Shown here piece by piece: positions 862-59,325 of a stretch of DNA of 64,000 bases. Location of the stretch: contig JAUHWY010000001.1 of assembly GCA_030427255.1 (NCBI GenBank), forward strand, positions 112,141 to 176,140. The letters are read 5' to 3'. The stretch is from Bacteroidia bacterium. GTDB taxonomy: Bacteria > Bacteroidota > Bacteroidia > CAIKAF01. The notes beneath the pieces are model-generated. The model was not told where the DNA came from. It searched no databases and saw only the letters and a program-made list of their open reading frames with translations. Position 1 is the stretch's first letter; each line of letters opens with the position of its first letter. Both the position numbers and the translations under genes were made by a program.

Positions 862-1014
862 TTTGGCCGCCTTTTCCCGCCCTTACCTTTAGCGTCCTTG
901 CTCCGGCGGGGCAGGGCTAGGCGCTGCGGGGTCCCCCAAAAAAAATGGGGGCCTCCTATCGCCAAGCCCTGCCAACCGCCCGAGCAAGGCCGGCTACCGG
1001 TGCGGTCGGGGGCG
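862..1014. repeat. Structured GC-rich intergenic element (family A)
   Basis: This 150 bp gene-free stretch between two minus-strand genes is far more GC-rich than its surroundings. It starts with TTTGGCCGCCTTTTCCCG and ends with CGGTCGGGGGCGG, close to the ends of the elements at 9265, 22949 and 39221. It folds into a long hairpin: CCTTGCTC (896-903) pairs with GAGCAAGG (982-989), GGCAGGGCT (910-918) with AGCCCTGCC (965-973), GGCG (920-923) with CGCC (960-963), and an apical CCCCCA with TGGGGG. No open frame of interest lies inside. Confidence 0.7.
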
Positions 1015-1030
1015 GAAATCTCGCTCCGTT

Positions 1031-1444
1031 TTAAGGCACGACGTTAAACTCAATGATGGAAATAAAGTATTCAAAAGTGGCTGTTCCACAGCAGTTACGA
1101 GCTGCATGCAAGCGCACCTGATCGCCGGCCTTTAGCCACATAGGCATTCGACTAAAGCTGTCAATCCGAATCCCTACAAATCCTCCTCCGGCATCTATTT
1201 CAATTTTTTGGGTTACCGAACCACTCAAGTCCGCAGAGGCTACTTCTATCTTCCAAACTTTGCCTGCCGGCACAGTCCAGCTGGGACTATTGTAGGACCA
1301 ATTACCTGTGGCACTTCCCGAATGACTTACCACTTGATTGAACTGCAAACTGCCCTGAGCATGTGCCTTGTTTTGAAATGAAACCAAGCTCAAAAAGCTT
1401 AACCAAAATAGTACTTGAGCAATAGATACGGTAAATCGAGGCAT
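1031..1444 (-). CDS. Small secreted protein of unknown function
   Basis: The 137-residue product has a signal peptide: a basic start, then hydrophobic VLFWLSFLSLVSF, with cleavage likely after AHA. The mature part of about 108 residues is rich in Ser, Gly and aromatic residues and looks all-beta. A CC pair (RNCCGTATF) sits near the C-terminus. I do not recognise a family. It is transcribed away from the larger secreted glycine-rich protein at 1564, and the two start codons are 119 bp apart, so they may share a control region; a functional link is only inferred. Confidence 0.7.
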   Translation of the reverse strand: MPRFTVSIAQVLFWLSFLSLVSFQNKAHAQGSLQFNQVVSHSGSATGNWSYNSPSWTVPAGKVWKIEVASADLSGSVTQKIEIDAGGGFVGIRIDSFSRMPMWLKAGDQVRLHAARNCCGTATFEYFISIIEFNVVP

Positions 1445-1548
1445 AGCGTATGGGGGTTTCTTTTAAATGTTTTCAAAAATAGGATTTCCTTTGCCCAAAC
1501 CTCACATCCGGTGCGCAGAAACCATAGAAAACCTTACTTTGGTGCTAG

Positions 1549-1556
1549 TAATTTTG
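1549..1556 (+). promoter_or_regulatory. -7 promoter element TAATTTTG
   Basis: TAATTTTG matches the Bacteroidota -7 consensus TAnnTTTG and ends 7 nt before the ATG at 1564, so the transcript would have almost no leader. No TTG is seen at the expected -33 distance. Confidence 0.5.
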
Positions 1557-1563
1557 CAGCGAT

Positions 1564-2856
1564 ATGCGTTTTCTTTCTTTCCTTTCTCTAACATTTTTAT
1601 CCCTTTCCCTTTCGGGCCAAGGGGTGCTTATCTCAAATCAACCGGGTCAGCCTTCTTCCGATGCTCTCTTAGAGGTCCGGTCTACTACCCAAGGCTTACT
1701 TTTTCCCAGACTTACCACCACCCAACGCAATAGCATCGCCAACCCCAACTCGGGGCTTACCATTTTTAACTTAACCAGCCAGTGTCTGGAAACCTATATG
1801 CCCAGTGGCAATTGGCGTCAGGTGGGATGTGATTGTGCCTCTTTCCCAAATCCTGCTTTCACCTTTTCACCTGCTTCAGGTAGTGTGAATAGTCCCGTTA
1901 GCTGTCAACCGGCCCTTTCCGGTCAAAGCTATGCCTGGTCTTTTACAGGCAATCCTTCCTTTGCCAACAATACCAATGCCAATAGCCAGCAACCTCAGGT
2001 CATTTGGAGTCAAGCCGGAAGCTATCAGGCCACCCTGCTCATTACCGATGCCAATGGCTGCAGCGACAGCCTTACGCAAAGTATCAGCATTTCTAATTGC
2101 GTAACCGGAGGAAGCCAAACCTTCAGTTTTACGGGAACGGTACAGCAATGGAGCATTCCCGCCGGGGTGTGTAGCCTCACCATTACTGCCCGCGGTGCCG
2201 CCGGTGGCGATAACCCGTTTTCCGGCTGCACCTATCAGGCAACCGGAGGTCTTGGAGCCGAAATTACCGGAACCTTTGCGGTAACTCCGGGCACTGCCTT
2301 AAGCATTATTGTAGGAGAAAGGGGAACCAATAGCAACGGCAATTGTGCAAATGGAGCTGCAGGTGGCGGCGGTGGTAGTTTTGTCTACCAAACCAATACC
2401 AACCAATTGTGGATTGCCGCCGGAGGCGGTGGCGGTGCGGCTCTCGAAAATCAAAATGCACCTCCCTACGTCAATGGAGTACCCGGACAAACCACCCAAA
2501 ACGGAAGCGATGGCCGCGAAGGACCGGGGGCTACTCCCGGTGGTACCGCCGGAAATGCAGGTGGCGGTGCAGGGCAAAGCGGTGGCCATGGTTGGAATCA
2601 GGTGCTTTCTAATCCCGCAGGTCGACAACCTTCAGGCGGCTATAACGCTCCCGGAGGCTATGGCGGCGGTGGCGCCAACCATACCAACGGCGGTGGCGGT
2701 GGTGGTGGTTATTCCGGCGGCGGTGGAACCACCGGATGCTGCAACGCCACCTTTTATTCCGCAGGCGGAGGAGGCGGTTCTTTCAACGCCGGACTTAATC
2801 AAAACAATCAATCAGGCACCCAAAGCGGAAACGGACAGGTGGTTATTACGTGGTAA
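1564..2856 (+). CDS. Secreted protein with PKD-like and glycine-rich domains
   Basis: The 430-residue protein begins with a signal peptide (MRFLSFLSLTFLSLSLSGQG). Residues about 30-75 carry the tail-fibre-like motif common in Bacteroidota surface proteins (LLFPRLTTTQRNSIANPNSG, then IFNLTS and GNWRQVGC). Residues about 80-180 form a PKD-like Ig domain (FTFSPASGSV to LLITDANGCSDSL). From about residue 185 to the end lies a glycine-rich domain with many GGGGG runs, closing on GQVVITW, as in the ALK-type Gly-rich family. It is probably exported and surface-located, in adhesion or matrix. No type IX sorting domain is seen. It ends 4 nt from the convergent trmN6. Confidence 0.8.
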   Translation: MRFLSFLSLTFLSLSLSGQGVLISNQPGQPSSDALLEVRSTTQGLLFPRLTTTQRNSIANPNSGLTIFNLTSQCLETYMPSGNWRQVGCDCASFPNPAFTFSPASGSVNSPVSCQPALSGQSYAWSFTGNPSFANNTNANSQQPQVIWSQAGSYQATLLITDANGCSDSLTQSISISNCVTGGSQTFSFTGTVQQWSIPAGVCSLTITARGAAGGDNPFSGCTYQATGGLGAEITGTFAVTPGTALSIIVGERGTNSNGNCANGAAGGGGGSFVYQTNTNQLWIAAGGGGGAALENQNAPPYVNGVPGQTTQNGSDGREGPGATPGGTAGNAGGGAGQSGGHGWNQVLSNPAGRQPSGGYNAPGGYGGGGANHTNGGGGGGGYSGGGGTTGCCNATFYSAGGGGGSFNAGLNQNNQSGTQSGNGQVVITW

Positions 2857-2860
2857 GAAT

Positions 2861-3562
2861 CTACAGGTAAAAGGCTCGGCACAGCTCCTCAAATTCGGGA
2901 CTCCTTTTGTCTCCGTTTTCAAATAATGTAAGCTGTTGAACTTCAAGCGGCACTTGTTCTCTTCCCCAAGAGCACAAATGTCTGGAAACAGCCTTGGTTG
3001 AGGTACTGCGCACTAAGGTATGGGCTTGTAAATGCATGCCGTCCTTCATGGCTTGTTGCCAAAACGCAAAGCTTACTTCCGGCAAAACCATGTGAATACG
3101 CCCTTCTTCGGTGAGTTGCTCCTGCATCCACTCTGCCCATTCCCATGGCAGATTTATATCTCCGTGCCTTGCGCTTTCCTTATCGGTGTTTTGGTTTTTG
3201 GTATGATTTAAAAAATAGGGCGGATTACACAGCAAATCATCTACCGGCACCGATGGTTTCCATTGTGGAATGGTTCCTTCAAACAGGTGTAATCTTTGGT
3301 GGAATGGACTTTGTGTAAAATTGGCCGCCGCTTGTTCCAAGGCTTTTGGATGCCGCTCTACTGCCCAGACTTGTCTTTCAGGATTCCGTTGTGCCGCCAT
3401 TAGGGCTAAAATCCCGGTCCCTGTGCCTGCATCCAAAATGGGTCCCGTACCGGCACTTGTATTGGCCCATGCCCCCAACAATACTGCATCCGTCCCTAGG
3501 CGAAAGGGCGCTAAATGCTGATGGAGCTCAAATTGCTTAAATCGAAAAACCGAGCTAGCCAT
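2861..3562 (-). CDS. trmN6: tRNA1(Val) A37 N6-methyltransferase
   Basis: This SAM-dependent enzyme methylates adenine 37 of tRNA1(Val). The sequence has the SAM-binding region ILDAGTGTGILALMAAQR and the N6-adenine signature NPPYF. The N-terminus SVFRFKQFELHQHLAPFRLG fits the TrmN6/YfiC family. I chose ATG 3562 (233 aa) because a perfect -7 element (TACATTTG) lies 4 nt before it; an upstream in-frame codon at 3583 falls in the promoter. It is convergent with the glycine-rich protein gene. Confidence 0.88.
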   Translation of the reverse strand: MASSVFRFKQFELHQHLAPFRLGTDAVLLGAWANTSAGTGPILDAGTGTGILALMAAQRNPERQVWAVERHPKALEQAAANFTQSPFHQRLHLFEGTIPQWKPSVPVDDLLCNPPYFLNHTKNQNTDKESARHGDINLPWEWAEWMQEQLTEEGRIHMVLPEVSFAFWQQAMKDGMHLQAHTLVRSTSTKAVSRHLCSWGREQVPLEVQQLTLFENGDKRSPEFEELCRAFYL

Positions 3563-3566
3563 GCGG

Positions 3567-3574
3567 CAAATGTA
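3567..3574 (-). promoter_or_regulatory. -7 promoter element TACATTTG of trmN6
   Basis: A perfect TAnnTTTG match on the minus strand, 4 nt before the ATG at 3562. It argues for a leaderless trmN6 mRNA and rules against the more distal start codon. Confidence 0.6.
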
Positions 3575-3640
3575 AAGCAGCAAAACAGGACAAGGGAATA
3601 TTTTAGGAAAATCCGTTATTTGTAGTGCAATTGAATCGAT

Positions 3641-4786
3641 ATGAGCGACCTATACATAAAACCAGTATCCACCAAAGCCGAACTCCGTCAATTCATGAAA
3701 CTCCCTTGGCGCATTTACGAAAACGACCCGGTTTGGGTGGCGCCGCTTTGGGGCTCTTACAAAAAGGTGTTTGACCCCAAACACAATCCTTTCTTTTTGC
3801 ATGGAACCATGGACTTGTTTATTGCCTTGCGCAACAACAAGGTAGTTGGTAGGGTAGCAGCCATCGTTAATCGTTTGCACAACGAAACCTGGAACGATAA
3901 GGTGGGCTTCTTCGGGTTTTTTGAATGCGAAGATGATCAAGAGGTGGCCAATGCGCTTCTGGACGCCGCAAAGGCCAATTTAGCCGAAAAAGGCTTTACC
4001 CACATGAGAGGCCCCGCCAGCCCATCTTCTAACGAAGACTATGGGGTAATGATCGACGGATTTGAAGAGCAACACGTAATTCTTAGTACCTACAACGCTC
4101 CTTGGTACTTTAAACTCTACCATACCTATGGTCTGGAACCCATCAAAACCCTCTACGCCTTTCGATTTGACGGTAAAAAAATTGTGAACCAAAATGCCGA
4201 ACGCATAGAACGCATCGAAAAAGCCCTTACTCAGCGCCTGGACTTCGAGTTGGTCGATCTGGACATGAAACGCTTCGAAGAAGGGGTAAAAACATTTAAG
4301 GGATTATTCAACAAGGCCTGGGGTACTACCTACAACCATGGCTGGGTGCCCCTCACCGACGAAGAATTTGACTTCATTACTGGCGACCTTAAACAAATTA
4401 CCGATCCACAACTGGTCATGTTTGCCAAGGTAAAAGGCGAAATTGTAGGCGGTTGCATTTGTTTGCCCGATTACAACGAAGTCTTTAAATCCTGGAAGGG
4501 AAAGCTCTTTCCATTCAATTGGATAGACATGTTTACCAAGGCCAAAAAAATCAAATGCATCCGTATCGTAATTTTGGGTGTAGTGCCCGAATACCAAAAG
4601 CGCGGGCTCGACGCACTCATGTACCTGCAAATTGCCAAACGGGGTTTGGCGCGCGGAGCCACCTGGGCCGAAGCCAGCTATATCGTAGAAGATAACGAAC
4701 CCATGAAAAAGCCCTTGCTCAATATCGGTGGCGAAATTTATAAAACCTACCAGGTTATGGAACAAACCATTGCTTCTAACGCTTAA
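3641..4786 (+). CDS. GNAT-family N-acetyltransferase
   Basis: The 381-residue protein belongs to a large GNAT-type family. The C-terminal acetyl-CoA region shows VILGVVPEYQKRGLDALMYL, where the Q-K-R-G-L motif is the pyrophosphate-binding loop. An N-terminal segment (MKLPWRIYENDPVWVAPL) is typical of this uncharacterised group. The substrate is unknown. There is no signal peptide, so it is cytosolic. The next gene starts 6 nt after the stop, so the two form an operon with a membrane protein. Confidence 0.8.
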   Translation: MSDLYIKPVSTKAELRQFMKLPWRIYENDPVWVAPLWGSYKKVFDPKHNPFFLHGTMDLFIALRNNKVVGRVAAIVNRLHNETWNDKVGFFGFFECEDDQEVANALLDAAKANLAEKGFTHMRGPASPSSNEDYGVMIDGFEEQHVILSTYNAPWYFKLYHTYGLEPIKTLYAFRFDGKKIVNQNAERIERIEKALTQRLDFELVDLDMKRFEEGVKTFKGLFNKAWGTTYNHGWVPLTDEEFDFITGDLKQITDPQLVMFAKVKGEIVGGCICLPDYNEVFKSWKGKLFPFNWIDMFTKAKKIKCIRIVILGVVPEYQKRGLDALMYLQIAKRGLARGATWAEASYIVEDNEPMKKPLLNIGGEIYKTYQVMEQTIASNA

Positions 4787-4792
4787 TCTTTA

Positions 4793-5344
4793 ATGCTTAA
4801 TCGTGTACGATACCTGTACCGTCGGGTGCTGCTTTTGCTGCTGCCCATGCGCGCATACCTCATCGAATCTCATTTGAGTTCCGAAGAAGTCTTGCTGCGC
4901 TTAAAAAGCATTATTTACGAAGACCGCCTGTACTTTATGAAGTCGCCGGATACCCAAAAACCATTTACCGGCCGCTTTTACCCCCAACGGTTCACCGCCA
5001 TTCGAAACCATCCCAAACCCTGGAAACGACGAATAAAAATTCGGGGCTATTGGCACAACAGCGAAGATGGAAAAGTAATGGTGCGCCTCATGATGTCCAA
5101 CCCTTTTTCGCCTTTCAATTTCTTCTTTTTGGGCCTTATGTACACCCTGTTCCTCTTGTTTTGGCCCGAACCCTTCCAGAACCCCTGGCTAAACGTAATC
5201 CTTTGGCTAATGCCGCTACTTGCCATGTTTTTGTTTACCAACATTTCTTTTCAAGGCATTTACAAAGAAGAAAAGCGACGCTTTTTTAAGCTGCTCAAGG
5301 GCATCCGTGTGCCTGAATCCAAGGCCCGTAAAATGGGCTATTAG
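4793..5344 (+). CDS. Uncharacterised membrane protein
   Basis: The 183-residue protein has two probable transmembrane helices at about residues 103-123 (FNFFFLGLMYTLFLLFW) and 130-152 (WLNVILWLMPLLAMFLF). A basic soluble N-terminal half and a basic C-terminal tail (KEEKRRFFKLLKG) flank them. The N-terminal RYLYRRVLLLLLPMRAYL is amphipathic. I do not recognise a family. It follows the GNAT gene by 6 nt and is probably co-transcribed with it. Confidence 0.7.
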   Translation: MLNRVRYLYRRVLLLLLPMRAYLIESHLSSEEVLLRLKSIIYEDRLYFMKSPDTQKPFTGRFYPQRFTAIRNHPKPWKRRIKIRGYWHNSEDGKVMVRLMMSNPFSPFNFFFLGLMYTLFLLFWPEPFQNPWLNVILWLMPLLAMFLFTNISFQGIYKEEKRRFFKLLKGIRVPESKARKMGY

Positions 5345-5398
5345 CAGCAATTGTTTCGCATTTTTCCCTCCCGCAAAGCATATTTTCTTCTTGTACGT

Positions 5399-5406
5399 AC
5401 CTTTGC
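5399..5406 (+). promoter_or_regulatory. -7 promoter element TACCTTTG
   Basis: A perfect TAnnTTTG match 42 nt upstream of the glycosyltransferase ATG. Unlike many genes here it would leave a leader of about 35 nt. No TTG is seen at -33. Confidence 0.45.
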
Positions 5407-5448
5407 CGCAAATAACCCTCGGCCCTTGGCCTTTTTTTTCCAATACAT

Positions 5449-6516
5449 ATGCACCTAGTCTTTGATGCCAAAAGGGCCTTTGTAAATGGAACCGGTCTCG
5501 GCCAGTATGCCAGAGCTCACCTTAGAATGGTAGCCCAACACCTCGGAGGCCAAGCCATAACCTTGTGCAGCCCTTTTAGCCGCATGCCTTCCTTTGAAGA
5601 GGAAATGAAAGAAGCCGGCGCTAACATCGTCTTTGTTGGTAAAGGGGCCTTTTGGCGCTCCAAACATCTGCCCAAAATCGCCGCTCAATCGGCCGCTACT
5701 ACTTTTCATGCTTTAAGCCCCGAATTGCCCTCCGGCATTCAAGCACCCACCATCGTGACGCTTCACGACCTCATTCCCTTCGAAAACCCTGCATACCATC
5801 GCTTCCCCGATGTGTTTTTGTATAAGCTCAAAAGCTCCAAAGCACTTACCCGTGCCGATAAAATTGTTTCGGTAAGCGCCCGCACCGCCCATGTGGCAAC
5901 ACGGTTTTTTCCCTCCCTAAGCTCAAAAATAGAAGTGATTCCCCCGGTATTTTTGCCCGCTCCGGAATGGGACGCACAAGCATCAACAGGCTATGCTAAG
6001 CCCTATATTTTGTATGTAGGAAGCCAAGACCTTCGAAAAAATATAGGAACACTGCTAAGGGCTTTTGCCGCTTCCGAAATTCGCCGGGACTTTTCCTTGG
6101 TGTTGGTAGGTCCCTTGGGAAGCATGACCCGCTCCTGGCGCGAGTTTGCACGCAATATGGAAATGGAAGACCAAGTACACTTTGCAGGTAGTGTTTCCGA
6201 AGCCCAAAAGGCCGCTTGGTACCGAGGTGCACAGGCCGTAGTTTACCCTTCCCTTGTCGAAGGTTTTGGCTTGCCCGTGCTCGAAGCGCTCTATTTTCAA
6301 AAGCCGGTCTTGACCGTGCAAGACAGCAGCATGGAAGAAGCCGGTGGACCCTTGGCACACTACTTTCCCGGCTTGGATGTTGGCGCCTGGACACACGGCT
6401 TAAATAGCATTCCCCATTTGGCTCCGCCCAAGCCCGAAGAGCTGCATAAGCACCTCCGGCAGTTTTCTACCGAGGCGCTTTGGCCCGCATGGAAAAAGGT
6501 CTATGGCCTTAGTTGA
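5449..6516 (+). CDS. Glycosyltransferase (GT4/group 1, GT-B fold)
   Basis: The 355-residue enzyme transfers a sugar from a nucleotide donor; the acceptor cannot be told from sequence. The C-terminal donor domain begins at YILYVGSQDLRKNIGTLLRAF (about residues 184-204). It contains the E-x7-E region SLVEGFGLPVLEALYFQKPV, the hallmark of GT4 enzymes. The N-terminal half holds the acceptor domain with VTLHDLIPFENP. There is no signal peptide or membrane segment. No other polysaccharide genes lie nearby, so its pathway is open. Confidence 0.88.
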   Translation: MHLVFDAKRAFVNGTGLGQYARAHLRMVAQHLGGQAITLCSPFSRMPSFEEEMKEAGANIVFVGKGAFWRSKHLPKIAAQSAATTFHALSPELPSGIQAPTIVTLHDLIPFENPAYHRFPDVFLYKLKSSKALTRADKIVSVSARTAHVATRFFPSLSSKIEVIPPVFLPAPEWDAQASTGYAKPYILYVGSQDLRKNIGTLLRAFAASEIRRDFSLVLVGPLGSMTRSWREFARNMEMEDQVHFAGSVSEAQKAAWYRGAQAVVYPSLVEGFGLPVLEALYFQKPVLTVQDSSMEEAGGPLAHYFPGLDVGAWTHGLNSIPHLAPPKPEELHKHLRQFSTEALWPAWKKVYGLS

Positions 6517-6560
6517 CTGCGTTTTCCGGACAACTTCTTGGGCCCAGCAAAGCTCAAATA

Positions 6561-6703: not shown

Positions 6704-6820
6704 AAATACTAAGCAATCCTCTCGACCCAAGCTCAATCCTTAGCACCCTTTAGCAGCCCTTACCAACAAGCGCTACGTTTAATTGCTATTAAGGGCTAGG
6801 CCAAAACGCCCCAAATGCCC

Positions 6821-6828: not shown

Positions 6829-6832
6829 CCCC

Positions 6833-9249: not shown

Positions 9250-9264
9250 CTTTTGTTTTAAGGA

Positions 9265-9413
9265 TTTGGGCGCCTTATCCGTCTCCGGTTCCAAGTCCTC
9301 GCTTGCCGGCCACCTTCGGCTAAGCGCTACGTGGGCTTCGTACCTCAGCCTCCGTGCGCCAAGCCGAAAGGGGCCGCCAAGCTCCGGGCTTTACACCTCC
9401 GCCGGGGCGCGTG
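9265..9413. repeat. Structured GC-rich intergenic element (family A)
   Basis: It begins TTTGGGCGCCTTATCCG and ends CCGGGGCGCGTG, as does the copy at 39221-39376. Shared blocks are AAGTCCTC, CTACGTGGGCTTC, TCAGCCTCCGTG and TCCGGGCTTT. The main stem TTCGGCTAAGCGC (9315-9327) pairs with GCGCCAAGCCGAA (9356-9368), with an internal bulge. The corresponding stem in the 39 kb copy has a different sequence but pairs equally well. From 9414 to 9598 I see nothing else apart from AT-rich sequence before the toxin-antitoxin pair. Confidence 0.75.
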
Positions 9414-9610
9414 ATTTTCCGGTGTTTTGGGTTCCAAAAGATAAGTTTACTTATACCTCTGTATTTTTGTTAGTCCCCCATTCTTTATACCATTTAGTGC
9501 CTTTGGAATTGTTCTGAGATGCATAAAGACTATGAACATTTCTTACAAATAAGAAAGCATAAAGGGTTCGATGGACATTTTTCCCTAATTTTACTCAAAT
9601 GCCTTGCATT

Positions 9611-14744: not shown

Positions 14745-14885
14745 TTCCAAAAAGTCGCCCCCAAGGCCAAGGGAGGGCCGCCCGCAGCCGGCGCTTAGCC
14801 GCTCCAAGGCGAGGAGGTGGAACCCCAATTGGGTGAACCCCCGCAGGCTCGGAGCGACTTGGCGCCGGGGAGGGAGACCGGAATA
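14745..14885. repeat. GC-rich intergenic element, probably related to the structured family
   Basis: A GC-rich block with AGTCGC near its start and GCGACT near its end, plus several smaller inverted repeats. It contains no gene. The boundaries are less clear than in the other copies, so membership of the family is only likely. The stretch 14886-14940 before the next gene shows nothing. Confidence 0.4.
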
Positions 14886-14940
14886 GGGCCGACTAGATTA
14901 AATGCACTACCTAGAGTGTAAGGGCCCGCCCTCCAACCAT

Positions 14941-15504: not shown

Positions 15505-15506
15505 AG

Positions 15507-22940: not shown

Positions 22941-22948
22941 GAATGTAT

Positions 22949-23213
22949 TTGGGCGCCTTTTCCCGTCCTCACTGCTACTCCGGCCCTGAAAAAACCGGTG
23001 CAGCAGGGCAGGTCGGGGTTTGCTGCGCGCCACCGCGCCCTGCTCCTTCGCACCAAATTCCGAACAAAACGGCGTTCGGCCCGCTTCCAATTTACCAATT
23101 GGCCCACTCATACAGCCCCTTGCTTTTGCAAAACATGCAGTGAAGAGCTGCTATAGAATGGCCGTTTTTATGCTTTTTCCCGGGCCGGGGTAATCCGTTC
23201 GGCCGGGGGCGCA
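22949..23213. repeat. Structured GC-rich intergenic element (family A, long form)
   Basis: It begins TTTGGGCGCCTTTTCCCGTC and ends TTCGGCCGGGGGCGCATG, matching the ends of the 862 and 39221 copies, but is about 265 bp. Inside are CCGGCCCTG/CAGGGC-type and GCGCGCCACCGCGC inverted segments. It may contain a second insertion near 23080-23170, where sequence becomes less GC-rich. It fills most of the gap between the two related secreted-protein genes. Confidence 0.6.
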
Positions 23214-23302
23214 TGGTCTATTTTCCGGAGTATGTTTTCCCGATAAAGGACAAGGTTTTTGCAGCTTTGCCCGAAGGATAGCTCCCTCTCCAAACACTTC
23301 CT

Positions 23303-32353: not shown

Positions 32354-32714
32354 AAAACCATTTTTAATTTAGGAATTTTTAAGTAGAAAAAGACGAGGGT
32401 AAATTGCGTGAAGGTATTTTAAAGGGCCTTATTAAGGCGTTAAATTTTTTAGGTTGATTTTTAAAGCTTGAGCTCAATTTCTGGGCGTTTTTTTTTGATT
32501 TAAATTTCTTTTGCGGAGACGTTTTTAGTATATTTCTGGTTTATAAATTTAGGTATTCGGTCTTTTTAAAATAGAGTTCGGTTTGCCTGTCGAATTTACT
32601 ATCGAAAGCTTTAAGGGCTATTTCACTGGAAAGTTGCTTGCCTTTTTTCCCTCAAATAATGCCTTAGCCTTTTGGTTATTTTTTATTGACTGCTTGGAAG
32701 AGGGTATAAGAAGA

Positions 32715-32860
32715 ATGGCCCCCCGGCCAAGCAAAGGGCCGTACGCCACCAAAGCTTAGCCCTTGTGTGCCGAGGAGGCCTCCCTTTAAGGGGAGGACCC
32801 CGCAGACCACTAAGGGCTTGGTTTTGGTAAGTACGACCGGAGCCAAGGGCGGATAGAATA
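32715..32860. repeat. GC-rich hairpin element in a long intergenic gap
   Basis: The 540 bp gap from 32354 to 32902 has an AT-rich part without any gene signal (to about 32700) and then this GC-rich block. CCAAAGC...GCCCTT pairs with AAGGGC...TTTTGG, and GGCCTCCC with GGGGAGG inside. It looks like another structured intergenic element, though its ends do not clearly match family A. Confidence 0.5.
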
Positions 32861-32902
32861 CAAGAATTTATAGATGGAAGGGCCCAAAACCCCCAAAAAG
32901 CA

Positions 32903-38952: not shown

Positions 38953-39065
38953 TTTTTTTGCCAAAGCCAAGAGTTAGGACAAACTGTCAGCTTTGTCCAT
39001 TCCTACTGACGCAATGCCTTAAAATAGGAGGATATGGTGTCAAAACGACAGGTCAAAAGGACTGT

Positions 39066-39208
39066 GAGATCGTTGATGCGCCGCTATTCTGGCTGCGACT
39101 TTGCGTTACGGCCAAATCTCAAGTTCCTCATTTACAGCCAGTAAACTGCGGACTTTCAATTTGGCCGTGCCTTAATTCGCCTTGAAAACACGACGCGTAA
39201 ACGGCCTC
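39066..39208 (-). mobile_element. MITE-like element, copy 3 (143 bp, 5 bp target duplication)
   Basis: Inverted relative to the copy at 6561 and exactly the same length. The ends are GAGATCGTTGATGCG and CGCGTAAACGGCCTC, and the interior GTAAACTGC/TTTACAGCCAGTAAA block matches. The flanks are perfect direct repeats ACTGT (39061-39065 and 39209-39213). The DNA between grpE and this element (38953-39060) holds no gene. Confidence 0.85.
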
Positions 39209-39220
39209 ACTGTTTTTTTA

Positions 39221-39376
39221 TTTGGGCGCCTTATCCGGTGCTTGCTGCAAGTCCTCACCGGTCAAGCACGCCTAGCTAAGGCCTACGTGGGCTTCTCAAG
39301 GAATTGAATCAGCCTCCGTGGCCTAAGCTAGGCGGCTTTCCCGGTTCCGGGCTTTTCGCGCGCCCCGGGGCGCATG
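39221..39376. repeat. Structured GC-rich intergenic element (family A)
   Basis: It starts 12 bp from the MITE. It begins TTTGGGCGCCTTATCCGG and ends CCGGGGCGCATG. Stem one: GTGCTTG (39238-39244) with CAAGCAC (39263-39269), loop containing AAGTCCTC. Stem two: GCCTAGCTAAGGCC (39270-39283) with GGCCTAAGCTAGGC (39320-39333), one mismatch. Stem two has a different sequence from that of the 9265 copy although the flanking blocks are the same. Confidence 0.78.
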
Positions 39377-39397
39377 TATCTTTTGGGGTTTTTGGGC

Positions 39398-44016: not shown

Positions 44017-44514
44017 GTGAAAACGTTGATTTTAGTTAGACATGCTAAATCCTCATGGAGCCAGGCGGGAGTTTCGGATCATGAAAGGGCATTAAATGCA
44101 CGAGGGAAGCGAAATGCGCCTGCGATGGGGCGTTGGTTGTTGGGCAGTGGTTGGTTGCCGGATTATTGGTTGTGCTCTGATGCACGAAGGGCCAAAGATA
44201 CTGCCTTTGCCATGATGCATGCTGCAAATCAAGCGCATTTAGAACTGACCTTAGTACCTGCCTTGTATCATGCTTCGCAGGAAATGTTGCTGCAACACAT
44301 ACAAGACCTGCCTGCGAGTGCGGAACGTGTGCTTATGGTAGGGCACAATCCCGGTTTGACTTATATTAATCGAAGTTTGGGCTTTAAGAGTTTGGATAAT
44401 TTGCCCACTTGTGGATTAGTGATATGGCAAGCAACGGATTGGGGGGCTTTGGCTTACGGCAAGGCAAGGTATGTAATGCATCAATTTCCAAGGATGTTGC
44501 ACCTCAAAGAATAA
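44017..44514 (+). CDS. SixA-like histidine phosphatase
   Basis: The 165-residue protein is a short histidine-phosphatase-superfamily member. The catalytic RHG-type motif is LILVRHAKSSWSQ and the second His lies in VLMVGHNPGLTYIN. SixA proteins dephosphorylate phosphohistidine on signalling or PTS proteins; the target here is unknown. The start is GTG 44017, directly preceded by GAGGGA, one of the few Shine-Dalgarno-like sequences seen here. Confidence 0.88.
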   Translation: MKTLILVRHAKSSWSQAGVSDHERALNARGKRNAPAMGRWLLGSGWLPDYWLCSDARRAKDTAFAMMHAANQAHLELTLVPALYHASQEMLLQHIQDLPASAERVLMVGHNPGLTYINRSLGFKSLDNLPTCGLVIWQATDWGALAYGKARYVMHQFPRMLHLKE

Positions 44515-44672
44515 ATGGGGCAGGGATGGAGGCGGTACCCCGGCGAAGTCCAAGCCACGGGCGGCCGCGGCTTTGGGGCGGAGCGTCTGCAAGCCCCCAA
44601 AGCCGGGTTGCCGCCAGTGGCTTGGACAAGCCGGGTAAAGCCGACAGCCCGGTTCAGCCCCCAAACCCCAAA
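44515..44672. repeat. Structured GC-rich intergenic element (family B)
   Basis: It begins right after the sixA stop and ends CCCGGTTCAGCCCCCAAA. Nested stems: TCCAAGCCAC (44549-44558) with GTGGCTTGGA (44617-44626), GGCGGC (44560-44565) with GCCGCC (44610-44615), and GGCTTTGGGG (44569-44578) with CCCCAAAGCC (44595-44604). The apical loop is CGGAGCGTCTGCAAGC. All three stems are perfect. No gene is inside. Confidence 0.78.
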
Positions 44673-51118: not shown

Positions 51119-51119
51119 G

Positions 51120-51548: not shown

Positions 51549-51554
51549 AACTAT

Positions 51555-52940: not shown

Positions 52941-52948
52941 GGAAATCT

Positions 52949-53905: not shown

Positions 53906-53915
53906 GTCGCAGGTT

Positions 53916-54089: not shown

Positions 54090-56209
54090 GGCTTAGCGTT
54101 TGAAGCAGTTTCTGTAACTTTAATATCGGTGCCTAAGCGTTGCAAATAGGCGATGAGGGCTATAATTTCTCGATTGGCCGGCACCTCAATCTTTTGCTTC
54201 ATCAAATTGGTGGCAATGGAATCGGCCTGGCGGCTCAAGTCGGCATTGGCTTGTTCAGCATATCCTTCCGGATATGGAACACCCAACTTTTGAAGGGTTT
54301 TAATCCGTGTGGCGGTTACTGAGGTGTCCAACTCGTTTTCTACCAACCAAGGGTATCTTGGCATTATGGAACCCGTACTTGTACTGGTAGGATCCAGCAT
54401 GTGGTTAAAGTGCCACCCGTCGGGATACTTTCCGCCCACCCGGTGCAAGTCAGGACCGGTGCGCTTTGAGCCCCACAAGAAGGGACGGTCATACACAAAC
54501 TCTCCCGCTTTGGAGTACTCTCCATAGCGCTCGGTTTCGCTTCGGAAGGGCCGAATCATTTGACTGTGGCATCCCACACAGCCCTCGCGTATGTATATGT
54601 CTCGGCCATGAAGCTCCAAGGCAGTATATGGCTTAACACTTTCAATGGTGGGTACATTGGATTTAATAAGAAAGGCCGGAACAAATTCTATAACTCCACC
54701 AATCAATATGGCCAAAAAGGTCATTACGGTAAAGAAAACAGGCTTGCGCTCCCAAACCCGGTGCCAAAACTCTTTGCCACCGCTGCGCATAGGCGCCAAG
54801 GCAGGAGCAGATGCCTCTTCTTCGGCCACAAACTTGCCGGAATAGGCCGTTTTAACTAAGTTATACACCATAAGGAATACACCTATCAGGTAAAGGCTTC
54901 CTCCAATGCTGCGCACCATGTGCAAATCCAAAATTTGATTGGTCGTTTCCAAAAAGCTGTAGGCCAATTGTCCGCTTTGCTCAAAATTCTTCCACATCAA
55001 ACCCTGCGTAACCGCAGCGGTGTACATGGGCAGGGCGTAAAATATGATGCCCATGGTGCCAATCCAAAAGTGCCAGTTGGCCAAACTTTTGGAGTACAAT
55101 TTGGTATTCCACATTTTAGGAACCAGCCAGTACAGCATACCAAAGGTCAGGAAGCCGTTCCAGCCAAGCGCACCTACGTGCACGTGGGCCACAATCCAGT
55201 CGGTGAAGTGGGCTAGGGCATTTACCTCTTTGAGCGAAAGTAGAGGACCTTCCAAAGTGGCCATACCGTAAGCAGTAACGGCCACTACCATGAATTTCAA
55301 AACCGGATTTTCACGGACACGATCCCAAGCGCCACGCAGGGTTAGGAGTCCATTTACCATACCTCCCCAGGAGGGAGCAATGAGCATAATGGAAAACGCG
55401 GTGCCCAAAGCTTGAGCCCACCCGGGCAAAGCAGTATACAGCAAGTGGTGCGGACCCGCCCAGATATAAATAAAAATCAAGGCCCAAAAGTGAACAATGG
55501 AGAGCTTGTAAGAGTAAACCGGCCGCTCTGCCGCTTTAGGCAAGAAGTAATACATAAGCCCCAAAAAGGGAGTGGTTAAGAAAAAGGCTACCGCATTGTG
55601 CCCATACCACCACTGCACCAAGGCATCTTGCACCCCGGCATACAGCGAATAACTTTTCATGCCGTCGGCCGGCAAGGCCAAGTTGTTTACCACATGAAGC
55701 ACAGCCACGGTCACAAATGAGGCCAAGTAAAACCAAATGGCCACATACATATGACGCACCCGGCGCTTGATCATGGTCATAATCATGTTAATCCCAAAGG
55801 CCAACCAAACCAAAGTAATGGCAATGTCTATCGGCCACTCCAATTCGGCATACTCTTTTGAACTGGTATAGCCTAGAGGGAGCGTTATTGCTGCCGATAA
55901 AATAATGAGCTGCCAGCCCCAAAAGTTAAACCAACTCAAAAACTTACTCCACATCGCTGCCTTAAGCAGCCTGGGCATGGAATAATAAATACCGGTAAAA
56001 ATGGCGTTGCCCACAAAGGCAAAAATTACCGCATTGGTGTGCAGTGGACGTATCCGGCCAAAGGTGGTAAAGGAGGTGTCCATGTTGGCCGGTACCCACC
56101 ACAGCTGAAAAGCCGCAAGCAAGCCCACCAGCATGCCCACAACGCCCCACACAACAGTGGCAATTAAAAAGGCCTTGACAATTTTATTGTCGTACTTAAA
56201 GTGCTCCAT
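54086..56209 (-). CDS. ccoN: cbb3 cytochrome oxidase, fused CcoN-CcoO subunit
   Basis: The 707-residue protein fuses two subunits. Residues 1 to about 470 are CcoN, the heme-copper core with about 12 helices, including WWYGHNAVAFFLTTPFLGLM (heme/Cu His) and HFTDWIVAHVHVGALGWNGF. Residues about 490-707 are CcoO: one helix (VMTFLAILIGGVIEFVPAFL) and a cytochrome c domain with REGCVGCHSQMIRPFRSET and PRYPWLVEN. It reduces O2 with high affinity while pumping protons. The fused form is characteristic of Bacteroidota. It overlaps ccoS by 14 nt. Confidence 0.95.
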   Translation of the reverse strand: MEHFKYDNKIVKAFLIATVVWGVVGMLVGLLAAFQLWWVPANMDTSFTTFGRIRPLHTNAVIFAFVGNAIFTGIYYSMPRLLKAAMWSKFLSWFNFWGWQLIILSAAITLPLGYTSSKEYAELEWPIDIAITLVWLAFGINMIMTMIKRRVRHMYVAIWFYLASFVTVAVLHVVNNLALPADGMKSYSLYAGVQDALVQWWYGHNAVAFFLTTPFLGLMYYFLPKAAERPVYSYKLSIVHFWALIFIYIWAGPHHLLYTALPGWAQALGTAFSIMLIAPSWGGMVNGLLTLRGAWDRVRENPVLKFMVVAVTAYGMATLEGPLLSLKEVNALAHFTDWIVAHVHVGALGWNGFLTFGMLYWLVPKMWNTKLYSKSLANWHFWIGTMGIIFYALPMYTAAVTQGLMWKNFEQSGQLAYSFLETTNQILDLHMVRSIGGSLYLIGVFLMVYNLVKTAYSGKFVAEEEASAPALAPMRSGGKEFWHRVWERKPVFFTVMTFLAILIGGVIEFVPAFLIKSNVPTIESVKPYTALELHGRDIYIREGCVGCHSQMIRPFRSETERYGEYSKAGEFVYDRPFLWGSKRTGPDLHRVGGKYPDGWHFNHMLDPTSTSTGSIMPRYPWLVENELDTSVTATRIKTLQKLGVPYPEGYAEQANADLSRQADSIATNLMKQKIEVPANREIIALIAYLQRLGTDIKVTETASNAKP

Positions 56210-56381
56210 GGTTTTTTGATTCCGATTGTTTGCTTTGGGTCACCCCATCTTCTTGCAGCATGCGCAATGCCGGAGTTTGCGTGTCCTCAAATTGCCCCTT
56301 CTTAACGGCCGAAAAAAACAGCCACAAAAAGAGACCTGCAACACACAAACTAATTCCAATCAATACGAGCAATACTTGCAT
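56196..56381 (-). CDS. ccoS: cbb3 oxidase maturation protein CcoS
   Basis: The 61-residue protein has one membrane helix (MQVLLVLIGISLCVAGLFLW) followed by SAVKKGQFEDTQTPALRML, the CcoS signature (K-x-G-Q-F-x-D). CcoS is needed for heme and copper insertion into CcoN. I prefer ATG 56381; the frame opens at 56411, but those ten codons contain the -7-like GACCTTTG. It is the first gene of the ccoS-NO-Q-P-G-H-TauE operon. Confidence 0.9.
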   Translation of the reverse strand: MQVLLVLIGISLCVAGLFLWLFFSAVKKGQFEDTQTPALRMLQEDGVTQSKQSESKNHGAL

Positions 56382-56401
56382 GCGATGGGCTTTAAACACA
56401 C

Positions 56402-56409
56402 CAAAGGTC
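56402..56409 (-). promoter_or_regulatory. -7-like element GACCTTTG of the cco operon
   Basis: GACCTTTG differs from TAnnTTTG only in its first base, like the GACATTTG before ccoI. It lies 20 nt before ATG 56381 and about 51 bp from the centre of the FNR-type box at 56454-56467. Confidence 0.4.
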
Positions 56410-56453
56410 ACCTTCTTTCGAGGCTTCGGGTATGAGCCACGTCAGGGCAAAAA

Positions 56454-56467
56454 ATGATATTTCTCAT
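56454..56467 (-). promoter_or_regulatory. FNR-type box upstream of ccoS (ATGA-N6-TCAT)
   Basis: ATGA-TATTTC-TCAT has the TGA-N6-TCA core of Crp/Fnr-family sites. Its centre (56460.5) is 51.5 bp from the start of the GACCTTTG element, about two helical turns further than at ccoI, so it would act as a distal (class I) site. This is a candidate. Confidence 0.5.
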
Positions 56468-56537
56468 GTTTTGCGCAAGGGCTTTATTAACAGTTTTTTA
56501 GAAAGTTGATTTGACTGACTTTTGACTATTTTTTTTT

Positions 56538-56693
56538 GGGGCGCCGGGCGGGCCCTTGCCTTTACTCCAAAGCCCAAAGGCCATGTGCCCCTATGCCGCC
56601 CGAGAGCTTCCTGTGGTCGCTTCGGCCGGCCAAGGGGCACAGGGCCTTTGGGCTTCGGGGTACCGGCGCGGTCCCTGCGCCTGTATCCTCCGT
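56538..56693. repeat. Structured GC-rich intergenic element (family B)
   Basis: It lies between ccoI and ccoS and touches the ccoI stop. On the minus strand it ends in GCCCGCCCGGCGCCCCAAA, as other family B copies do. Stems: AAGCCCAAAGGCC (56570-56582) with GGCCTTTGGGCTT (56643-56655), and TGTGCCCCT (56584-56592) with AGGGGCACA (56633-56641), both perfect, separated by one mismatch. An inner GCCG...CGGC stem closes the loop. It may also work as a transcription barrier between the two cco units. Confidence 0.78.
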
Positions 56694-59078
56694 TTATAGA
56701 TTGCAGCTGTTTTTTTGACTTGTTCTAGCTATCCACCACGTACGACTTATAGCCCAGGCTACCACCGTTAAACTGCTTATAGGCATTAGAATCGCCGCAA
56801 TTACAGGGTGCAACCATCCGGCCAAGGCAACCCCTACACCTATGGTATTGTACAGAATACTTAAGGTGAAACACTCTTTTATTATACGTGTAGTTTCTCT
56901 ACTTAAGCGCAATATATCGGGAAAGTCGGCTAAATTTCCCGCCTCCAGAATGGCATCGCAAGCCGGAAAAAATCCGTTTACCGTACCCGTTACCGCCACC
57001 CCAATATCGGCTTTTTTTAAGGCCGGGGCGTCGTTCAAACCGTCGCCCAAAAAGCAGACCTTGCGCTCTTCTTTTTGCAGTTGTTCAATGGCTTTTACTT
57101 TGTCCTCGGGTTGCTGCCTAAACAACAAACGTGCCTTTGAACCGGCCCAGCTTGCTAAAGTTTTGGCTTCGCCCTCGTGGTCTCCGCTAAGAATGCATAA
57201 GGCATGGCTTTTCCCCAGCTTTTGCAACATGCCCTGAACCCCCTGCCGGTATTGATTCTGAAAGTGAAATCCCCCCAACACGCCATCGGGGCTTGCAAAA
57301 AGGGTTCGGCCTGTGCGCCAAGGGTCATCCGGATGTTGACTTACCCAAGCATAATGTCCCAGTTTCCAACCTTCTGCAGTCTGCAGTCCTTTTCCGGGGA
57401 GTTCCTCTACAGCTATGCCATTATTTGTCTTTATGTTTTGGCTTTCCAGCCAATGTTTAATGGCCAAACTCACCGGGTGCCGCGATTGCGAAACCATAGA
57501 AGCAAGGGTTTGCAGGGCCTCATCCGAGAGCGGCGCTCCATTCCATACCACTTTTCCGGTTTTGCCTTCGGTCAGGGTGCCGGTTTTGTCAAACACCAAG
57601 GTTTGCGCGTGCGCCAGCTCCTCCAAAACCTTGGGTTCGCGCACAAAAAAACGTCGACGGGCCAACAAACGGGCCATATTGCCCGTGGCAAAGGGGGCAC
57701 TTAAGGCCAAGGCACAAGGGCAAGCAATAATTAGGATAGAGCTTACAATTTCGAGCCAGCGGTCGGGCGATTGGAAATACCAAAACAGGCCGCCACCTAA
57801 AGCCACCAAGAGTACGGCCAAAATAAACCAACCCGCCAAGGTATCGGTTAAGCCTTTGCCTTGCGTTTTGAGGGCATCTTGTGCGCCTTTGTTCCAAAGT
57901 CCTTTCAGGTAGCTTTGGTCGGCTCCCTGTTCCAATTGCATGTCAAAAACCTGCCCGGCATTTCGCGCTCCGGCAAAAACTGCCGTTTGGGCTTTAATGG
58001 AGAGGGCTTCGCTTTCTCCGGTTACAAAACTGTAATCCAACGAGGCTTTGGGGCTAAGTAAGGTGCCGTCGGCAGGCACTAAATCTCCGGGAAAGAGGCG
58101 TACTTTATCCCCTTTTTTTAGCTGACTCACCGGCCGTTCTATTTCGGTATCGGCTTCCAAGGCCACGGCAGAAAGTGGGAGGTAGCCGGCCGGGTCTCGG
58201 TCAAACCGGAGCGAATGAAAAATGCGCGCCTGATACCATTTGGCCAGCAATAGAAAGAAAATAAGTCCGGCCAAGCTGTCGGCATAGCCCGGCCCGGTTT
58301 CACTTAAAATATCCCATGCCGTACGAATAAAGAGCACCAGCATGCCTAAAGCAAGGGGTATATCAATATGTACTTGTCGGTTTTTTATGGCCAACCAAGC
58401 GGTTTTGAGGTAATCGGCCCCGGAAAAAAAAAGCAAAGGCAGGCAAAAGGCCAGGTTTAAGTATTGAAAACTTCGGTAAAGCAAAGGATCTTCGGCCTCT
58501 GTAAACCCTAAGTATTCGGGAAAACTCAAGAGCATAACATTACCTAAGGAAAACCCGGCTACGCCGAGTTGCTGGATTAAGGTATGGTTGCCTATTCCTT
58601 TTTTGTTGTTTTGGGCTTGGTCGGGCTGGGGTGAGTAGCCAATACTGCTAAGCAATAAAGCGAGTTCAGAAGCTTTTATGGTGTTGGGGTTTACCCAAAG
58701 GTCTATGGTTCTGTTGCTCAAATTGGCCTCAGCCGAAAGGATTCCTGGGTGTAATTCAGGAAGGCGATCGAGCAACCAAATGCAGGAAGCACAATGCATA
58801 CCGGGAAGGTACCAACGCGCACGAGCCTTATCTTCTTGCCAAAATTTCCAAACGGTGTTTAGGTGTTCCGGGGCATCCATCCAGGCAAAGCGGGCCTTTT
58901 CGGGTCGGTTCGAAGAGCGTTCCGGAAGCGCATAATAGGCTTCTAAGCCGCTGTGATGCAGCATATGGTATACCTCGGCGCAGGCCGTGCAGCAAAAAAG
59001 TTCTTTCTCTTTTTGGATCGGGCTAGCACCAATAGGGTCGCCACAATGAAGACAGGGTTGTTCGGGCGCATGCTCCAT
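56694..59078 (-). CDS. ccoI: Copper-translocating P-type ATPase of the cbb3 locus (FixI)
   Basis: CcoI/FixI supplies copper for the oxidase. The 794-residue protein has an N-terminal Cys-rich metal site (CLHCGDPIG, FCCTACAEVYHML) and an HMA domain with MHCASCIWLLDRLP. About eight membrane helices include the transport motif IIACPCALALSAPFATG. Then come the phosphorylation site LVFDKTGTLTEGKTG and the hinge FLGDGLNDAPALKKADIG. I chose ATG 59078; the frame opens 30 nt upstream in the promoter. It has its own FNR-type box, and ccoS follows after about 310 bp. Confidence 0.95.
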   Translation of the reverse strand: MEHAPEQPCLHCGDPIGASPIQKEKELFCCTACAEVYHMLHHSGLEAYYALPERSSNRPEKARFAWMDAPEHLNTVWKFWQEDKARARWYLPGMHCASCIWLLDRLPELHPGILSAEANLSNRTIDLWVNPNTIKASELALLLSSIGYSPQPDQAQNNKKGIGNHTLIQQLGVAGFSLGNVMLLSFPEYLGFTEAEDPLLYRSFQYLNLAFCLPLLFFSGADYLKTAWLAIKNRQVHIDIPLALGMLVLFIRTAWDILSETGPGYADSLAGLIFFLLLAKWYQARIFHSLRFDRDPAGYLPLSAVALEADTEIERPVSQLKKGDKVRLFPGDLVPADGTLLSPKASLDYSFVTGESEALSIKAQTAVFAGARNAGQVFDMQLEQGADQSYLKGLWNKGAQDALKTQGKGLTDTLAGWFILAVLLVALGGGLFWYFQSPDRWLEIVSSILIIACPCALALSAPFATGNMARLLARRRFFVREPKVLEELAHAQTLVFDKTGTLTEGKTGKVVWNGAPLSDEALQTLASMVSQSRHPVSLAIKHWLESQNIKTNNGIAVEELPGKGLQTAEGWKLGHYAWVSQHPDDPWRTGRTLFASPDGVLGGFHFQNQYRQGVQGMLQKLGKSHALCILSGDHEGEAKTLASWAGSKARLLFRQQPEDKVKAIEQLQKEERKVCFLGDGLNDAPALKKADIGVAVTGTVNGFFPACDAILEAGNLADFPDILRLSRETTRIIKECFTLSILYNTIGVGVALAGWLHPVIAAILMPISSLTVVAWAISRTWWIARTSQKNSCNL

Positions 59079-59083
59079 GGGGT

Positions 59084-59128
59084 CAAATGTCAGGAATTGA
59101 AGGTTCAAAAAGCATGATTTTGGTCATG
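59084..59128 (-). promoter_or_regulatory. ccoI promoter with FNR-type box
   Basis: The inverted repeat CATGA-CCAAAA-TCATG (minus-strand reading; 59113-59128) has perfect 5 bp arms and the TGA-N6-TCA core. Its centre (59120.5) lies 29.5 bp before GACATTTG (59091-59084), a -7-like element that ends 5 nt before ATG 59078. This is exactly the spacing at the promoter of the Crp-like gene at 60177. There is no -33 TTG, as expected for an activator-dependent promoter. Confidence 0.68.
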
Positions 59129-59164
59129 CTGGTCAAAAGAAAGCTAAGCTCTCGAAGCTTGCTA

Positions 59165-59325
59165 TGGAAGACGGGCCAGGGACAGCAGCGGCAGCCCGGA
59201 GGAGCCGGCCTTTGCTAGGGCGCAGCGGCCGGGCGGAGCGCAGCAAGCCCCGGGGGCTGCTTGCCCTAGCATAGGCCGGAGCCGAGGACTATAGCGGATG
59301 GCCCGTTCGGCCCCCAAAACGTTCA
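59165..59325. repeat. Structured GC-rich intergenic element (family B)
   Basis: It lies between the divergent ccoI and fnr-like genes. The main stem GGCCTTTGCTAGGGC (59207-59221) pairs with GCCCTAGCATAGGCC (59263-59277) at 14 of 15 positions. The loop holds GGGCGGAGCGCAGCAAGCCC, close to the loop of the 44515 copy (GGGGCGGAGCG, GCAAGCCCC). It ends GCCCGTTCGGCCCCCAAAA. Confidence 0.75.

What the first reader, a model, noticed from the sequence alone, without database searches (positions are those of the whole stretch)
862..59325. Family of structured intergenic elements whose stems covary between copies
At 862, 9265, 22949, 39221 (family A) and 44515, 56538, 59165 (family B) lie GC-rich elements of mostly about 150 bp (265 bp at 22949) with similar end blocks (TTTGGGCGCCTT...; ...GCCCCCAAA). 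Their stems pair well but differ in sequence: GCCTAGCTAAGGCC/GGCCTAAGCTAGGC at 39 kb, TTCGGCTAAGCGC/GCGCCAAGCCGAA at 9 kb, AAGCCCAAAGGCC/GGCCTTTGGGCTT at 56 kb, TCCAAGCCAC/GTGGCTTGGA at 44 kb. Keeping the pairing while the sequence changes is the mark of selection on structure. The loops keep fixed words (AAGTCCTC, CTACGTGGGCTTC, GGGCGGAGCG, GCAAGCCCC). I know of similar blocks in other Bacteroidota but of no described function.
Basis: partly seen in the sequence, partly recalled or inferred. Interest (0 to 1): 0.76.

Follow-up and report, generated by a model that had tools for sequence, protein, structure and literature searches.

The report
Flavo-1-like folded intergenic repeats
The window carries copies of a roughly 155-base fold-back element, related to the unexplained Flavo-1 motif of Bacteroidota, that is scattered through the genome and kept nearly unchanged at each compared site, which suggests that the copies do something for the cell although nobody knows what.

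Summary
Families A and B are one family read on either strand. A model built only from other genera (34 matches, none from this genome) finds all seven reported elements, E 1e-31 to 2e-6. Contig C50 carries about one copy per 10 kb (28 in 285 kb).
Covariation is strong and occurs in place: copies at matching loci in relatives carry isolated compensatory changes.
Compared copies are individually conserved: against relative G004, elements differ by 5.8%, fourfold sites by 34%, nearby noncoding flanks by 18%. In a shared 145-kb block, 19 of 20 elements were tabulated and all 19 sit at matching sites.
Closest known family: Rfam Flavo-1 (RF01705). Two Flavobacterium copies match Flavo-1 and our model; window copies do not reach Rfam's cut-off.
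G.T is not clearly favoured over A.C in the copy alignments, orientation in co-directional gaps is random, and Y1 transposases were not found in three element-rich genomes. This argues against a simple cis-RNA or REP/RAYT system, without excluding RNA.
Most likely: a folded DNA site read by an unknown protein at gene boundaries (0.4).

The parts
861..1020 (+). full element, A orientation
   Evidence: R1 86.9 bits, R2 56.3, fold z -6.0
9264..9415 (+). full element, A orientation
   Evidence: R1 131.3 bits (in R1's training set), R2 91.4, z -3.6
14752..14911 (-). weak candidate copy; extent inferred from the G004 counterpart
   Evidence: R1 19.5 bits at 14781-14874; G004 hit of 28 bits at the matching place; z -1.6; not found by R2
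22947..23217 (+). element with recognisable ends and an enlarged interior
   Evidence: R2 30.2 bits; R1 15.9 bits partial; sequence read
   Evidence: R1 26.3 bits, z -4.4, present and 164/185 identical in G004; not found by R2
39220..39378 (+). full element, A orientation; best copy
   Evidence: R1 157.1 bits (in R1's training set), R2 114.4, z -5.9
44512..44666 (-). full element, A orientation on the minus strand
   Evidence: R1 28.5 bits, R2 36.0, z -5.8
56534..56686 (+). full element, A orientation
   Evidence: R1 74.1 bits, R2 72.5, z -6.3
59168..59319 (-). full element, A orientation on the minus strand
   Evidence: R1 43.5 bits, R2 60.9, z -2.5

Best explanation
A Flavo-1-like intergenic element in a long-armed, GC-rich form. 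One strand folds into a single rod of about 155 nt: an outer stem, an internal loop, a conserved AAGTCC/GGGCTT helix, and a long arm whose sequence is free but stays complementary. Shown here: covariation between copies, compensatory change at matching loci, and strong conservation of compared copies at their own sites. Inferred: it works as DNA rather than as part of one gene's message. It would extrude (cruciform, or single strand during replication) and a protein conserved in these bacteria would read the base of the hairpin, with the B strand (the strand Rfam models for Flavo-1) as the one whose fold matters. Its frequent place between convergent genes and just behind stop codons suggests a boundary role, for example docking a DNA-topology or nucleoid protein between transcription units, as proposed for BIMEs of enterobacteria (recalled). 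The protein and the outcome are not identified.
For: Conservation in place: elements 5.8% changed, fourfold sites 34.3%, flanks 17.6% plus 9% unaligned, sharp at both ends; 25 matched elements 90-99% identical. Compensation in place with few wobble steps: 14 double against 8 WC<->GT changes at 18 G000/G004 loci, 22 against 6 in six G001/G002/G003 comparisons; by my count 20 of these 36 are transversions, which no wobble step can bridge. G.T about as common as A.C in reliably paired columns: 52:44, 7:1, 5:12. Mismatches strand-biased: pyrimidine pairs on A, so purine pairs on B, 128:43, 26:10, 23:3. Co-directional gaps 26 same, 31 opposite. No U run behind the stem on either strand: mixed T/C on A, A-rich on B. 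Flavo-1 hits sense or antisense and often outside transcribed regions (PMC9723704 passage). Convergent gaps 39/84 occupied against 78/448 others.
Against: No protein partner, no DNA-level measurement. In matched pairs single changes on B give G.U 28 to A.C 12 (both directions counted), which suits RNA. The strand bias of mismatches shows only that one folded strand matters, not that it is DNA. Single pair-breaking changes (64) outnumber compensatory ones (15) when structures come from one member alone. The convergent excess is not seen on contig C50 alone (3/17 against 14/100). All other noncoding sequence differs by only 13.5% plus 7.7% unaligned, so the contrast with noncoding sequence is smaller than with fourfold sites.
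Confidence: 0.4

Rival explanations
1. A structured RNA, as Rfam files Flavo-1: the B strand is transcribed, mostly within untranslated parts of transcripts, folds, and affects stability, processing or termination.
For: Rfam models the B strand. Purine-purine mismatches and, in matched pairs, G.U (28:12) are better tolerated on B. Copies often abut stop codons (5' end 31 of 73 within 10 bp, 3' end 11 of 78) and occupy many convergent gaps.
Against: G.T about equal to A.C in the copy alignments; random orientation in co-directional gaps (26:31); 23 of 138 divergent gaps occupied; no U run; published transcriptome gives no consistent strand (PMC9723704 passage).
Confidence: 0.3
2. A non-autonomous mobile element (MITE or REP-like), moved by a transposase that acts on the hairpin; structure is kept because only folded copies move.
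For: Many dispersed copies; patchy distribution (G014 97 hits, G015 none, same genus); a 95%-identical copy at another locus in G004 and a replaced interior; near-identical tandem short forms in Pedobacter; two of three own Y1 genes have a copy close by.
Against: Sites shared with G004 at 19 of 19 tabulated loci, with far less change than fourfold sites; matching sites also in G001-G003; no Y1 gene found in G001, G005, G014. A different 145-bp repeat beside the 39-kb element does show an empty site in G004.
Confidence: 0.15
3. Not selection but mutation: arms are kept complementary by hairpin-templated correction and gene conversion between copies, without any function.
For: Double changes with few G.T intermediates, 20 of 36 being transversions; apical hairpins changing as units; one interior replaced between otherwise matching flanks.
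Against: Does not explain why elements change about six times less than fourfold sites nor why a T.G pair is kept in 104 of 133 copies; several compensations are isolated single pairs among unchanged neighbours.
Confidence: 0.1

Closest known systems
Flavo-1 RNA (Rfam RF01705; Weinberg et al. 2010, PMC2864571, table row seen)
   Same: Same base of the rod: conserved words, symmetric internal loop and inner helix; Bacteroidota; two Flavobacterium copies are hit by both models over the same span. The own genome also holds short forms below Rfam's cut-off.
   Different: Window copies have a long arm and give no RF01705 hit at E 5. Mismatch and orientation patterns are not those of a typical cis-RNA.
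REP/BIME repeats with RAYT (Y1) transposases
   Same: Many dispersed palindromic intergenic copies; opposite-facing pairs (8 of 8 shared gaps).
   Different: About 155 nt instead of 20-40 bp (size from PMC3733652 abstract); no Y1 gene found in three element-rich genomes; the own Y1 genes have separate short palindromes beside them.
MITE-like repeats such as ERIC or bcr1 (recalled)
   Same: Size and intergenic scatter.
   Different: Shared, strongly conserved sites in G004.
Integron attC sites (recalled)
   Same: One folded strand, free arm sequence with kept complementarity, fixed mismatches.
   Different: Scattered singly between ordinary genes, not in cassette arrays. No integron integrase was sought.

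Membership tests
Flavo-1 (RF01705) | score at or above Rfam's gathering score of 42 bits | tested here: not met
   No window match at gathering nor at E 5; own genome best 33.9 bits, a short form. Two Flavobacterium copies of the family do meet it, 42.9 and 42.1 bits.
Flavo-1 (RF01705) | core sequence and structure at the base of the rod | tested here: met
   Flavo-1 consensus aligns to the reverse complement of the element's base in F. limicola, arm left as an insert; the short form in L137 likewise. Shown on relatives, not on window copies.
Flavo-1 (RF01705) | transcribed as an RNA | not testable with these tools
   No expression data at hand; only the passage in PMC9723704.
REP/RAYT | Y1 transposase in the same genome | tested here: not met
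   No PF01797 match at E 0.001 in element-rich G001, G005, G014; present in G000, G002, G003 (weak), G004.
REP/RAYT | repeats beside the transposase gene | tested here: inconclusive
   Of 31 fetched Y1 loci (not all Y1 rows), five have a match below E 0.001 within about 1.5 kb: L032, its G004 counterpart L088, L033, L077, L069; G000 has a copy about every 10 kb anyway.
MITE / mobile element | empty sites in close relatives | tested here: not met
   0 empty among 19 tabulated sites against one relative, G004. Locus C1:778526 of G004 has a divergent element (22.6 bits) at the G000 counterpart.
MITE / mobile element | target-site duplication | tested here: inconclusive
   Flank composition shows a T-rich 5' side and a T/C-rich 3' side; no duplication search was run.
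intrinsic terminator | U run directly behind the stem | tested here: not met
   A strand: T 0.30-0.43 mixed with C 0.24-0.39 behind the stem; B strand: the T-rich 5' flank of A reads as A.
functional RNA stems in general | G.U preferred to A.C among changed pairs | tested here: inconclusive
   Copy alignments about even (52:44, 7:1, 5:12 for G.T:A.C on A); matched pairs 28:12 in favour of G.U on B and 15:29 on A.
integron attC | integron integrase and cassette array | not tested
   No integrase search was made.

The most novel reading that the evidence does not exclude
Flavo-1 and its long-armed kin are not RNA genes but DNA landmarks: hundreds of dispersed fold-back sites per genome, individually kept by selection on the fold of one DNA strand and read by an unknown, widely conserved Bacteroidota protein at boundaries between transcription units.
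Probability: 0.33. Interest if true: 0.8.

Novelty: new variant of a known kind. Interest (0 to 1): 0.58.

Why it matters
Flavo-1 was described in 2010 and the papers I could search give it no function. If some hundreds of copies per genome are each under selection in place, this is a large unexplained set of functional noncoding sequence in these bacteria, and the orientation and mismatch data say that DNA-level roles should be tested beside RNA roles. The constraint at single loci makes deletion, inversion and pull-down experiments worthwhile.

Tried and rejected
REP/RAYT: two of three Y1 genes of the own genome have an element just behind them. Dropped because no Y1 gene was found in three element-rich genomes and G000 has an element about every 10 kb. 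One Y1 gene in another family (G029) has a short form nearby; not followed further.

Young mobile element: not the main reading because sites are shared and conserved against G004; a neighbouring 145-bp repeat that is missing at the G004 site served as a contrast.

Intrinsic terminator and 3'-UTR RNA: no U run, no orientation preference in co-directional gaps. Dependence on the replication strand: the 38 hits on G004 contig C1 listed (a capped list) are 19 plus and 19 minus in 24 runs.

Literature: the literal-sequence search gave 11 papers, none of whose titles concern this; 'flavo-1 rna' gave none; 'flavo-1' or 'rf01705' gave five, of which passages of PMC2864571, PMC9723704 and PMC9029176 were seen and two only as listings. 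Broader searches were seen as listings and abstract starts; none names this element. One passage of PMC12306157 is a table of genome counts. The library lacks most subscription papers.

Weak points: structures were predicted from one member of a pair, from both together, which hides mismatches by construction and makes its permutation mean (0.25 and 1.7) too low as a null. Alignments A3-A6 were fitted to a model. R1 rests on 20 hand-picked copies and a hand-drawn structure. Candidates scored: 150 of 1178 in the own genome, up to 97 per relative, 26 per genome in the phylum search; counts are lower bounds. Dropped rows: of 135 matches, one wrong-strand and one overlap duplicate were left out but kept; two window copies (44512, 32712) were added by hand. 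One of 20 block elements (window about 14752) was not tabulated because its left flank lies at the block's edge. The stretches were chosen because they hold elements, so occupancy figures are not a random sample. and others examined about a third of the own genome.
Full report
WHAT IS THERE. A BLAST with the 39-kb element gave 42 matches in the own genome. Alignment of copies shows one plan, which I call the A orientation: T-rich start, TTTGGGCGCC, a bulge, CCGG, an internal loop, AAGTCC, a long arm, an apical hairpin, the returning arm, GGGCTT, a loop, CCGG and GGCGC. The fold is a single rod. The AAGTCC/GGGCTT helix changes coherently to TACTCC/GGGGTA, TAGTCC/GGGCTA and AAATCC/GGGTTT between copies while keeping a T.G (T.G in 104 of 133 copies). 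'Family A' and 'family B' are one family on opposite strands. B strand below means the reverse complement of A.

CHANCE. On 20 copies with a hand-drawn structure 89.5% of cells form standard pairs, 33 of 50 pairs have changes on both sides, and the covariation score is 0.483 against 0.134 for shuffles and at most 0.147 for slid structures. Model R1 from these copies finds the elements in the window, but two of them were in its training set and wrong-strand hits of real elements reach 30.6 bits. A second model, R2, built from 34 matches in other genera, is independent of this genome: it finds all seven reported elements at E 1.3e-31 to 1.9e-6, with two wrong-strand hits of 27.6 and 17.8 bits. 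Two further candidates, 32712-32866 and about 14752-14911, rest on R1 and on counterparts in G004 and are not found by R2 at E 0.01.

NUMBER. In the own genome R1 gave 147 matches, 140 of them at E 6.4e-10 or better, from 150 scored of 1178 candidates. On contig C50, taken whole, I count 28 distinct matches at E 0.01 in 285 kb, about one per 10 kb. Extrapolated, roughly 300 per genome.

DISTRIBUTION. With R1 at E 1e-6, the five other same-genus genomes hold 68-94 hits; G014, in a neighbouring genus, 97; the nine others of the family 0-11; 15 genomes from other families of the class none (up to 97 candidates scored each). R2 hit 14 of 118 genomes of the phylum, own genome included, with 26 candidates scored each and strict filters. 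G004 has the contig lengths of JAGYKD01, Flavobacteriales bacterium M30B58.

RELATION TO FLAVO-1. Rfam finds nothing relevant in the window. In 14 other loci it finds Flavo-1 three times. Two of these, in F. lacus (6083-6225, minus) and F. limicola (3947-4089, minus), are the stretches that R1 matches on the plus strand (6075-6228, 60.6 bits; 3939-4091, 56.9 bits). The alignment shows the Flavo-1 consensus as the reverse complement of the base of the element, the arm left as an insert. The own genome also has short, about 80-nt forms below Rfam's cut-off (best 33.9 bits). So the window copies are long-armed relatives of Flavo-1; by Rfam's criterion they are not members.

CONSTRAINT IN PLACE. 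G004 shares a 145-kb block with C50. Of 20 elements there, 19 were tabulated and all 19 have an alignable counterpart at the same place. Genes in the block (115) were called from codon-position substitution patterns. Fourfold sites differ at 34.3% (6058/17678), elements at 5.8% (177/3044, gaps 0.2%), coding sequence at 11.8%, noncoding flanks 6-60 bp away at 17.6% plus 8.9% unaligned, and all other noncoding sequence at 13.5% plus 7.7% unaligned. The change is sharp at both element ends, and the apical part varies most (14%). Over 25 matched elements, some outside the block, identity is 90-99%; paired positions differ by 3.8%, unpaired by 10%. Wholly decayed copies would escape the model, so this describes copies that survive.

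COMPENSATION IN PLACE. Elements also persist at matching sites among G001, G002 and G003 where most flanks hardly align (G002 and G003 are closer). Counting only pairs that both members can form, 18 G000/G004 loci show 14 compensatory double changes and 8 WC<->GT changes, and six G001/G002/G003 comparisons show 22 and 6; by my count 20 of the 36 are transversions. Several are isolated single pairs. With structures predicted from one member alone the balance at 19 G000/G004 loci is 15 compensatory, 25 single changes keeping a pair, 64 single breaking, 9 double breaking, and over five G001/G002 comparisons 19, 8, 32 and 7. Single breaking changes are thus the commonest class, which speaks against strict selection on every pair.

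RNA OR DNA. In columns with at least 85% Watson-Crick pairs, G.T and A.C on A are 52:44, 7:1 and 5:12 in three alignments; pyrimidine-pyrimidine against purine-purine mismatches on A are 128:43, 26:10 and 23:3. On B these are purine pairs. In matched pairs single changes on B give 28 WC>GT to 12 WC>AC, and 36 purine to 8 pyrimidine mismatches, each pair counted in both directions. So the fold of one strand, B, seems to be the one that matters; whether as RNA or DNA is not settled. Co-directional gaps hold 26 same and 31 opposite copies (p 0.6), 23 of 138 divergent gaps are occupied, there is no U run, and in F. psychrophilum Flavo-1 hits lie indistinctly in sense or antisense of transcribed regions, many outside them (PMC9723704, passage). 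Purine mismatches and G.T being the better tolerated ones also fits the order of mismatch stability in DNA (recalled). I lean to DNA.

PLACE. Of 135 copies 45 lie between convergent genes, 61 between co-directional, 24 between divergent, 1 in a called gene, 4 at edges (gene caller agreed with 113 of 115 comparative 3' ends). By gap, 39 of 84 convergent gaps are occupied against 78 of 448 others (p 4e-8), in stretches largely chosen for holding elements; in the 11 C50 sources alone it is 3/17 against 14/100, no clear excess. The 5' end lies within 10 bp of a stop codon in 31 of 73 cases, the 3' end in 11 of 78 (p 1e-4). Where two copies share a gap they face each other in 8 of 8 cases.

EXCHANGE. 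The element at G004 C1:778526 is 95% identical to the window's 39220 element, and the matching own-genome locus has similar flanks up to the element ends but a different interior that R1 matches only weakly (22.6 bits). This suggests replacement or conversion between copies. Apical hairpins also differ as units. A different 145-bp repeat at window 39065-39209 is absent at the G004 site, while 29 G004 places match it in a capped list. A link to Y1 transposases was examined and not upheld.

VERDICT. The element is a long-armed variant of a known but unexplained motif. The mechanism I think most likely, a protein-read folded DNA site at gene boundaries, is an inference held at 0.4; the RNA reading stands at 0.3.

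Noticed in passing
window 39065-39209: A different repeat of about 145 bp lies directly before the 39-kb element; it is missing at the matching G004 site, and 29 G004 places match it (capped list), so it looks recently mobile.
   Followed up: partly
L031, L032 (own genome C44, C7) and L077 (G029 C3): Y1 transposase genes have short palindromic repeats of their own beside them (GCTCCGTAGGAGC, GACCCCGAAGGGGTC, CAACCCCTGCGGGGTTG), as expected of REP/RAYT loci.
   Followed up: no
L046 (G004 C1:778526) and L296 (own genome C35:48307-50281): Matching flanks but a different element interior in the two genomes; looks like replacement of one element by another in place.
   Followed up: partly
L203 3027-3684 (Pedobacter sp. 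Leaf216): Four short forms with equal scores in two close pairs, as if recently duplicated.
   Followed up: no
L205, L222, L241, L260 (Flavobacterium): Similar elements end shortly before what looks like the same start codon (ATGAAAAA...), a possibly conserved 5' position.
   Followed up: no
L017 and L018 (own genome C49): Two copies carry a similar long insertion between the apical part and the returning inner helix.
   Followed up: no
L005, L006, L007 (own genome C42): Three nearly identical copies on one contig with similar 5' flanks, probably part of a larger duplication.
   Followed up: no
L233 (JACSSC010000011.1): The record is titled Competibacteraceae, but its contig length equals that of contig C61 of G009, a genome of the window's own family, so the title seems wrong.
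   Followed up: no
L137 14820-15000: A long array of ATCATTCATC-like units lies between a short Flavo-1-like form and a long element.
   Followed up: no
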